Assembly (NCBI GenBank): GCA_003165895.1
Contig: PMXD01000377.1
Location: 20,327-55,407, forward strand
Reading direction: 5' to 3'
DNA length: 35,081 nt
Origin: Bacteroidota bacterium
Lineage (GTDB): Bacteria > Bacteroidota > Bacteroidia > Chitinophagales > LD1
Shown here: piece by piece, positions 25,360 to 26,487 of the stretch
Layout of the letters: each line of letters opens with the position of its first letter
Numbering within the stretch: the first letter of the stretch is position 1
The notes under the pieces: model-generated
The model's input: the letters and a program-made list of their open reading frames with translations, nothing else
Database searches by the model: none
What the model was told of the DNA's origin: nothing
Translations under genes and position numbers: made by a program

Positions 25360-25376
25360 GGAGATGGAAAGGGGGA

Positions 25377-25459
25377 GGGGGTGGTTTCCACTTTTTAAAT
25401 TACCTAATTGATTATCAATATATTAATCTCTCAAGACCCGTTTCCCGGAAACCACCCCC
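25377..25459. repeat. Long-loop inverted repeat after the SDR gene
   Basis: GGGGGTGGTTTCC (25377-25389) and GGAAACCACCCCC (25447-25459) are perfect 13-bp arms around an AT-rich 57-base loop. It may end SDR transcription. Confidence 0.65.
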
Positions 25460-25508
25460 TTTCATTTTGAAGGCCCTCTAACTCGTCATCGTTTATAACG
25501 AGGATGTT

Positions 25509-26487
25509 GTGGCTTATGCATTTTTAATGCGTGTGTATTAAAATGAAATACAGGCGTTACAAATGCCAATGCCTGAGAATCCTCGTTGCAAACGAGAACC
25601 AGTTGGATGGAATGAATGTTGAAATACAAAAATACACTAGCGTGACGCTAGAAACATAGCAGAGCGAAGCAAGATGCTTCGCTCAAGGCTTACGCTATGC
25701 GCAAGAGGGGGAATATGCAACGGGCACAAAGAAGTTGTTTGTATTAAGCCCTGAAAGGGCGACAAGACAATAGCACCGGGTGCAGCCCGGTGTAGACAAA
25801 TGGCCGGATTAACAGCCCTGCAAGGGCGCAAGATTAATCCCACACATACCGCTCATCATATTCAACGCGGTACTTTTTCAGGAATGCACGGTATTCATCC
25901 TGAAATGTTTTTTTGGCGTGATGCTCTTTTTGATTGGAGATATATTTTACAACTGTCTCAACTTCGGTAGGGTTTACCGAAAAGGCACCGTAACCATCCT
26001 GCCAATAAAAATTACTGAACTCCTCACCTTTAAGTTTCATCCATTTAGATGAGTGCGATTTCAATTCTTCTAAAAGCTTTACAAGCGCAATCTTTTTTGA
26101 TAACAGGCAAAGGAGGTGAACGTGGTCGGTGTAGCCTCCGGTTTTAATTGGATAGCAGTCCAGGTTATTACAAATACCGCCCAAATATGCGTGTAAATCA
26201 TCTTCCACATTATCCGTTATTAGCGGCATGCGGTTTTTAGTGCTGAACACGATATGCAGGTAATTTTGAACGAGCGATTGTCCCATATTCTTGCGCCCTT
26301 TCAGGGCTTTATGTTTGGTTTTTCTATTTACACCGGGCTTACACCCGGTGCTATTGTCTTACCGCCCTTTCAGGGCTTAATACACGGCAATGTATAATGG
26401 TGGAAGCTATTTTGCAAATGTGGCTTACGCATTTTTAATGCGTGTGTATTAAAATAAAATACAGGGATTACAAATGCTAATGACTGA
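25509..26487. mobile_element. RAYT/IS200-like element with nested repeats
   Basis: Unit of 979 bases bounded by 68-bp direct repeats (25509-25576 and 26420-26487; 62 of 68 positions equal by eye). Inside are inverted repeats around the transposase gene: a pair of about 55 bp at 25742-25796 and 26327-26382, and a 20-bp pair at 25814-25833 and 26289-26308. The inner arms themselves are hairpins (GCCCTGAAAGGGC and CACCGGGTG..CAGCCCGGTG). The left side also holds CTCGTTGCAAACGAG (25582-25596), CTAGCGTGACGCTAG (25637-25651) and a 10-bp-stem hairpin (25662-25684). Such clustering of palindromes with a Y1 transposase gene is the hallmark of REP/RAYT systems. Confidence 0.8.
25834..26286 (-). CDS. 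REP-associated tyrosine transposase (Y1_Tnp, IS200-like)
   Basis: A 150-residue single-domain HUH endonuclease related to TnpA of IS200/IS605. The metal-binding HUH motif is H55-V-H57 in YTDHVHLLCLL. The nucleophile Y115 lies in VVKYISNQKEHH, the YIxNQxEHH form common in Bacteroidota RAYT-like proteins. Start and typical opening (SLVQNYLHIVFSTKNRMPLI) are complete, so it may be active. It should cut single-stranded DNA at hairpin ends. No TnpB gene accompanies it. Its start and stop lie within 10 bases of inverted repeats that are themselves palindromic, consistent with recognition of its own flanks. Confidence 0.92.
   Translation of the reverse strand: MGQSLVQNYLHIVFSTKNRMPLITDNVEDDLHAYLGGICNNLDCYPIKTGGYTDHVHLLCLLSKKIALVKLLEELKSHSSKWMKLKGEEFSNFYWQDGYGAFSVNPTEVETVVKYISNQKEHHAKKTFQDEYRAFLKKYRVEYDERYVWD

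What the first reader, a model, noticed from the sequence alone, without database searches (positions are those of the whole stretch)
25509..26487. RAYT transposase within nested inverted repeats and a 68-bp outer direct repeat
The transposase gene is bounded by a 20-bp inverted pair, then by a pair of about 55 bp made of two hairpins, and finally by 68-bp direct repeats about 91% alike. Y1 transposases usually have subterminal hairpins and no inverted or direct repeats of this size. This could be a composite REP unit, with the direct repeats as remnants of a target, recombination between two REP clusters, or a distinct transposon type.
Basis: seen in the sequence. Interest (0 to 1): 0.7.

Follow-up and report, generated by a model that had tools for sequence, protein, structure and literature searches.

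The report
Jumping gene with hairpin-pair ends
A small bacterial transposase gene sits between mirror-image copies of its own two-hairpin DNA repeat, inside debris of two other transposases, and that repeat is the same thing that RNA databases list as a mystery small RNA (Acido-Lenti-1), which suggests the 'RNA' is really the end of a mobile element.

Summary
The repeats are real, but the layers have different owners. The gene (25834-26286, -) is a Y1 transposase with the signature DHVH / WQ / YISNQKEHH. That is TnpA-Y1 subclass 1.2, not a RAYT (class 2). The inner inverted repeats (h1-h2-h1' hairpins, about 100 bp per end) are its own ends. The 69-bp direct repeats are parts of a paired REP of another transposase (subclass 2.6 RAYT); they occur without this gene, and the right copy is missing from the same gene's ortholog in a sister genome. 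A third transposase's REP lies at 25631-25704.

Two results go further. (1) Subclass 1.2 was published as lacking REPs. Here inverted repeats around 50 of 78 related genes beat all 391 controls, and all 15 genomes with the close clade carry the hairpin unit, against 22 of 281 without it (P=1.5e-15). (2) The unit is Rfam RF01687, 'Acido-Lenti-1 RNA', function unknown, read on the opposite strand. It also occurs as gene-less inverted pairs of roughly constant spacing. Acido-Lenti-1 is therefore best read as a DNA element end, at least in Bacteroidota. Three restriction-modification islands in this genome lie between such units. Mobility and mechanism are inferred.

The parts
25834..26286 (-). 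Y1 (HUH) transposase gene, 150 aa, TnpA-Y1 subclass 1.2 (DHVH, WQ, YISNQKEHH)
   Evidence: Pfam PF01797 88 bits; NCBIfam NF033573 65.6 bits, cut-off 55; motifs compared with Table 1 of PMC6006769
25738..25836 (+). left end of the element (3' side of the gene): h1 25748-25760, h2 25774-25792, h1' 25815-25827
   Evidence: inverted with the right end; covariance model R1 hit C347:46073-46121; Rfam RF01687 26.7 bits on - strand, 25747-25792; folds, z -4.2
26286..26386 (-). right end of the element (5' side of the gene): h1' 26295-26307, h2 26331-26350, h1 26364-26376; h1' sits just upstream of the start codon
   Evidence: Rfam RF01687 35.6 bits (gathering 37) at 26331-26377 +; folds, z -5.8
25480..25606 (+). 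B-type unit: inverted pair of REPs of a different transposase (subclass 2.6-like RAYT); holds the left 69-bp copy 25508-25576
   Evidence: full 127-nt fold z -5.3
26419..26487 (+). right 69-bp copy: truncated core of a B-type unit, 91% like the left copy, outer hairpins missing
   Evidence: absent beside the ortholog in the sister genome
25631..25704 (+). C-type REP of a third Y1 transposase (family of G000:C227)
   Evidence: 87.8% over 74 nt to the C unit; C units flank the C227 Y1 gene as an inverted pair

Best explanation
A small REP-associated element: a subclass 1.2 Y1 transposase gene between two inverted copies of its own end unit (h1-h2-h1'), which lies among REPs of two other Y1 transposases (B, C). 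Most likely working: the HUH enzyme binds the hairpins on single-stranded DNA (for example at the replication fork), is guided by the conserved [TC]A[AG]C foot of h2, and cuts and rejoins ends, so that end units spread alone or as gene-less inverted pairs, like REPs and REPINs of RAYTs; h1' just before the start codon may also dampen translation. Shown: anatomy, ownership, dispersal, conservation in relatives, co-occurrence, presence/absence between sister genomes. Inferred: that the enzyme acts on these units, the single-strand route, the guide role, the translation effect. The unit is Rfam Acido-Lenti-1, so that 'RNA' is, at least in Bacteroidota, best read as a DNA end unit. The outer direct repeats are two diverged copies of a B-type unit and not part of the element.
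For: Subclass 1.2 motifs; 79/80 relatives have Y---Q--HH. Inverted flanks in 50/78 relatives beat all 391 controls. Hairpin units: 155 in 71 kb near the genes, 25 in 598 kb elsewhere. Units in all 15 genomes with the close clade vs 22/281 without, P=1.5e-15; in the genus 21 and 7 copies in the two genomes with the gene, 0-4 in 16 others. Independent model RF01687: over its gathering score beside such genes in L078, L102, L103 (and 370-560 bp upstream in L086) and at solo copies in the window's genome; 32/37 positive genomes have a subclass 1.2 gene vs 106/259, P=1e-7. Gene-less inverted pairs with steady spacing: G157 (158-163 nt), G060, G084, G182. Orthologous element in a sister, without the right-hand direct repeat. 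B units only in genomes with the B transposase, but for one weak 28-nt match.
Against: No transposition was observed, and no clean empty site with exact ends was found for the gene-bearing element. 28 of 78 relatives do not pass the strict inverted-repeat test. 22 genomes have units without the close-clade gene; 5 RF01687-positive genomes have no detected subclass 1.2 gene. The base-pair covariation is partly circular because hairpins were used to pick the units. The Acidobacteria and Lentisphaerae where the 'RNA' was first described could not be checked. Transcription of the unit is not excluded.
Confidence: 0.82

Rival explanations
1. The whole nested structure, with its 69-bp direct repeats, is one transposon type, the direct repeats being its ends or target duplications.
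For: The two 69-bp copies are more like each other (91%) than like the other copies compared (about 80%) and bracket the gene.
Against: The direct repeat belongs to a family of 17-29 places in the genome whose owner is a different transposase; the sister genome has the same gene and inner ends but no right copy; a C-type REP lies between the left copy and the element; distances to the two ends differ (163 and 34 bp).
Confidence: 0.04
2. The hairpin unit is a functional small RNA (Acido-Lenti-1, as filed in Rfam) that happens to lie near transposases.
For: Curated Rfam family with covarying stems; listed as 'probably RNA' in PMC2864571.
Against: Units lie on both sides of the gene in opposite orientation, occur as inverted pairs and solo copies, and follow the transposase gene across genomes. 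Hairpins with compensatory changes are equally expected for single-stranded DNA recognised by Y1 enzymes.
Confidence: 0.1
3. A classical IS200 insertion sequence (subclass 1.1) with ordinary subterminal hairpins.
For: NCBIfam IS200/IS605 model over cut-off; closest solved structures are IS608 and related TnpA, E about 0.002.
Against: Y---Q--HH signature, two diverged copies in the genome (77% identical) instead of many near-identical ones, ends inverted to each other, and many solo end units.
Confidence: 0.08

Closest known systems
TnpA-Y1 subclass 1.2 (Quentin et al. 2018, PMC6006769)
   Same: All listed protein motifs, length (150 vs 148 aa), low copy number, occurrence in Bacteroidota.
   Different: Published as without REPs and generally without typical IS200 end structures; here it has conserved inverted two-hairpin end units that are dispersed in the genome.
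REPtron / RAYT (TnpA-REP, class 2) with REPs, BIMEs, REPINs
   Same: Transposase gene bordered by its own hairpin repeats, solo copies and inverted pairs elsewhere, one repeat family per transposase (papers; here).
   Different: Protein is class 1 (Y---Q--HH, not Y---NP); the repeat has two or three hairpins and a [TC]A[AG]C foot, not GT[AG]G.
Rfam RF01687 Acido-Lenti-1 RNA (Weinberg et al. 2010, PMC2864571)
   Same: Same two hairpins, same CUA-n-UAU linker, opposite strand; copies over the gathering score in the window's genome.
   Different: Filed as a small RNA of unknown function in Acidobacteria and Lentisphaerae; here a DNA repeat tied to a transposase in Bacteroidota.
IS200/IS605 insertion sequences (IS608, ISDra2)
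   Same: HUH Y1 fold family, hairpins near the ends.
   Different: No TnpB in the element, ends inverted to each other, solo end copies, low copy number.
TIRYT / TIRtron (PMC3733652)
   Same: Y1 gene between long terminal inverted repeats that are members of dispersed repeat families.
   Different: TIRYTs are mostly subclass 2.1 with a C-terminal HTH and GGGG-type repeats; not so here.

Membership tests
TnpA-Y1 subclass 1.2 | HuH motif DH[IV]H | tested here: met
   DHVH at residues 54-57
TnpA-Y1 subclass 1.2 | Y motif Y---Q--HH (YIKNQKEHH) | tested here: met
   YISNQKEHH; 79 of 80 relatives
TnpA-Y1 subclass 1.2 | short protein, about 148 aa, WQ motif, low copy number | tested here: met
   150 aa, WQDGY, two gene copies of the close clade in the genome
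TnpA-Y1 subclass 1.2 | described as lacking REPs (a published remark, not a defining trait) | tested here: not met
   units found at 65 of 80 loci; strict inverted-repeat test passed at 50 of 78 and by 16 of 26 diverse genus members at score above 26
RAYT / TnpA-REP (class 2) | Y motif Y---NP | tested here: not met
   YISNQKEHH
RAYT / TnpA-REP (class 2) | REPs with a 5' GT[AG]G foot (most subclasses) | tested here: not met
   foot of h2 is mostly [TC]A[AG]C
RAYT / TnpA-REP (class 2) | gene flanked by dispersed hairpin repeats (REPtron arrangement) | tested here: met
IS200/IS605 (subclass 1.1) | curated IS200 profile | tested here: met
   NF033573, 65.6 bits over cut-off 55
IS200/IS605 (subclass 1.1) | many near-identical full copies | tested here: not met
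   only one further close copy, 77% identical
IS200/IS605 (subclass 1.1) | transposition through a single-stranded circle, no target duplication | not testable with these tools
   needs an assay
Rfam RF01687 Acido-Lenti-1 | score at or above gathering (37 bits) | tested here: inconclusive
   window copies 35.6 and 26.7; other copies in the same genome 37.6-38.6, over the cut-off
Rfam RF01687 Acido-Lenti-1 | acts as an RNA | not testable with these tools
   no expression data

The most novel reading that the evidence does not exclude
Subclass 1.2 transposases move any DNA bracketed by two inverted, outward end units, including whole restriction-modification systems. In this genome three such islands are bracketed as the transposase gene is: a type I system (hsdR, hsdS, ATPase, hsdM; G000:C9), a two-methyltransferase island (C42), and a type IIG island (C245/C43) present where two sister genomes have the neighbours directly joined.
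Probability: 0.2. Interest if true: 0.8.

Novelty: new variant of a known kind. Interest (0 to 1): 0.62.

Why it matters
It gives a likely role to a subclass of Y1 enzymes that had none: they look REP-associated, like RAYTs, but come from the other half of the family, so the REP lifestyle may have arisen twice. It also explains a 2010 'RNA' of unknown function that is still used to annotate genomes; a 2026 paper (PMC13298647) suggested it might regulate virulence proteases in Tannerella. And it shows how to read such loci: each repeat layer belongs to a different transposase.

Tried and rejected
Target-duplication reading of the 69-bp repeats: rejected (sister genome, distances, other owner). 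An exact empty site of the window's element: not found; G013 and G011 carry the upstream gene without the transposase, but the neighbourhood downstream differs. Reading exact ends of solo copies from orthologous intergenic regions: two loci differ (the hsdM side of C9, and the X-Y site), but divergence blurs the exact ends. Looking for a subclass 1.2 gene within 1.5 kb of the best RF01687 hit per genome gave only 3 of 30, as expected if most copies are solo, so adjacency from that side is weak evidence. A first alignment with L073 failed because that gene has a stop codon. A literature search for the repeat sequence itself found nothing.

Full report
WHAT IS THERE. The window (G000:C347:20327-55407 of a 5.65-Mb, 388-contig assembly) holds a Y1 transposase gene at 25834-26286 on the minus strand. 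On each side lies an end of about 100 bp with three hairpins, h1 (GCCC-TGAAA-GGGC), h2 (CACCGGG..CCCGGTG) and h1' next to the gene; the two ends are reverse complements (95% over 43 bp, 91% over the 23 bp nearest the gene). Both ends fold as single strands better than all shuffles. Outside them are a 74-bp C-type REP on the left only (25631-25704) and the 69-bp direct repeats. The left direct-repeat copy is the core of a 127-bp inverted pair (25480-25606); the right copy has lost the outer hairpins.

WHO OWNS THE OUTER LAYERS. The outer repeat matches 17 places in the genome, most without this gene; its half unit matches 29. B units flank a different Y1 gene (C203, C356) whose protein has NHLH, WQ and YIHDNP, i.e. 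subclass 2.6-like RAYT by PMC6006769 Table 1. Across 18 genomes of the genus, close relatives of that gene occur in G000, G006, G012 and G013, and B units occur there (29, 10, 1 and 7) and otherwise once, as a weak 28-nt match in G016 (Fisher P=0.0016). C units flank a third Y1 gene, C227, as an inverted pair. The two window B copies are 63/69 identical, against about 80% for the other copies compared, so a local duplication of the B unit is the simplest origin of the direct repeat (inference).

SISTER GENOME. G006 carries the same upstream gene and intergenic repeat (84%), and the same transposase (90% protein) with the same inner ends (54 bp, 96%) at the same site. It has no 69-bp copy to the right; two B-type copies lie on the left. 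It also has an unrelated 67-bp direct repeat (91%) bracketing the gene and an extra solo end unit. The outer layer is thus not fixed; the inner one is. G013 and G011 have the upstream gene and no transposase after it.

WHAT THE ENZYME IS. DHVH, WQ and YISNQKEHH in 150 aa are the marks of TnpA-Y1 subclass 1.2 in PMC6006769, which is described there as low copy, in Cyanobacteria and Bacteroidetes, without REPs and generally without IS200-like ends. The NCBI IS200 profile also matches (65.6 bits over 55); the nearest solved structures are IS608 and related TnpA. The genome has six subclass 1.2 genes.

TEST OF THE INNER LAYER. In 80 relatives (59-78% identical; nearly all Bacteroidota bins and isolates) 79 have Y---Q--HH. 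An inverted repeat between the 300-bp flanks exceeds the maximum of 391 same-geometry controls in 50 of 78 loci. A sequence-blind two-hairpin search finds 155 units within 450 bp of the genes (71 kb) and 25 in the remaining 598 kb; 65 of 80 loci have at least one. The consensus is AGCCCTGAAAGGGCG-nn-AT[AC]-nn-[TC]A[AG]C-GATGGGCAACGCCCATCG; stems change by compensatory substitutions in all 12 pairs, with the caveat that stems were used for selection. More distant subclass 1.2 genes of the genus have other hairpin repeats in inverted flanks: 16 of 26 genes exceed all 101 controls (score above 26).

CO-OCCURRENCE. With a covariance model, the two genus members with the close-clade gene have 21 and 7 units, the other 16 have 0-4. 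In 296 genomes of the class, 15 of 15 with the close-clade gene (over 220 bits, next below 185) have units against 22 of 281 without (P=1.5e-15). Counts are lower bounds (at most 20 candidates scored per genome).

ACIDO-LENTI-1. The unit on its other strand is Rfam RF01687: 35.6 bits at 26331-26377 (gathering 37) and 26.7 at the left end. Around relatives it passes the gathering score within 80 bp of the gene (L078, L102, L103) and 370-560 bp upstream (L086); in the window's genome, solo copies at C245, C9, C42 and C43 pass. The consensus shares the 8-bp hairpin, CUA-n-UAU linker and 5-bp hairpin. RF01687 is an independent model (Weinberg 2010, PMC2864571). 32 of 37 positive genomes have a subclass 1.2 gene against 106 of 259 (P=1.1e-7). 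In G157 the gene at C61:13696-14142 has copies in opposite orientation 68 and 55 bp from its ends, and at least six gene-less inverted pairs with 158-163-nt spacing, nearly identical in sequence. G060, G084 and G182 also have inverted pairs of similar spacing (positions, spacings), and G000:C100 has one. This is what non-autonomous pairs (REPINs) look like and not what an RNA gene looks like.

RESTRICTION-MODIFICATION ISLANDS. End units lie next to R-M genes in L046, L050, L051, L053, L058, L059, L064, and L057 through its second gene, i.e. 8 of 14 loci scanned; in none of 13 B-REP loci scanned. These are not independent: six fall on three islands. Each island is bracketed by two inverted outward units: C9 (type I hsdR, hsdS, ATPase, hsdM; the unit starts 9 bp after hsdM), C42 (D12 and N4/N6 methyltransferases), C245/C43 (type IIG). 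At the last, G006 and G013 have the neighbouring genes X and Y directly joined; there the units lie 257 and 786 bp inside the insertion, and the join of the two contigs rests on a 23-bp overlap. So mobilised cargo is possible but unproven; hot spots for gene gain would look the same.

MECHANISM. By analogy with IS200/IS605 and TnpA-REP enzymes (established knowledge; papers), the likely route is recognition of h2 with its 5' foot on single-stranded DNA, cleavage by the tyrosine, and rejoining. h1' lies about 10 nt before the start codon and could limit translation. None of this was tested.

VERDICT.

Noticed in passing
window 25366-25460: Another dispersed repeat of about 95 bp with 14-bp perfect inverted ends (AGGGGGTGGTTTCC/GGAAACCACCCCCT), at least 7 copies in the genome and several in the sister G006; owner unknown.
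   Followed up: no
L249 (G000:C9:6200-15300), L248 (G000:C42:26500-31700), L183/L184 (G000:C245, C43): Three restriction-modification islands bracketed by inverted outward end units of the subclass 1.2 element; no R-M genes found next to B-type REPs.
   Followed up: partly
L231-L239 (G157): Gene-less inverted pairs of the unit, about 230 bp, nearly identical copies, often next to a GGGCGGTTCGCGAACCGCCC palindrome and near TAAATGATGATTTA, which may be yet another repeat or a target.
   Followed up: partly
L065 1581-1647 / 2627-2693 (sister G006): An unrelated 67-bp direct repeat, also 91% alike, brackets the orthologous transposase in the sister genome; whether two such brackets are chance is open.
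   Followed up: no
L018, L019, L022, L165, L169, L172: Other subclass 1.2 genes have their own, different inverted hairpin repeats (e.g. GGGCTAAAGCCC with CCCCACGCTAAAGCGTGGGG), hinting at repeat-enzyme co-evolution within the subclass.
   Followed up: partly
PMC13298647 (literature, no window coordinates): A 2026 pangenome paper reads Acido-Lenti-1 copies next to Tannerella KLIKK proteases as possible regulators; they may be element ends.
   Followed up: no
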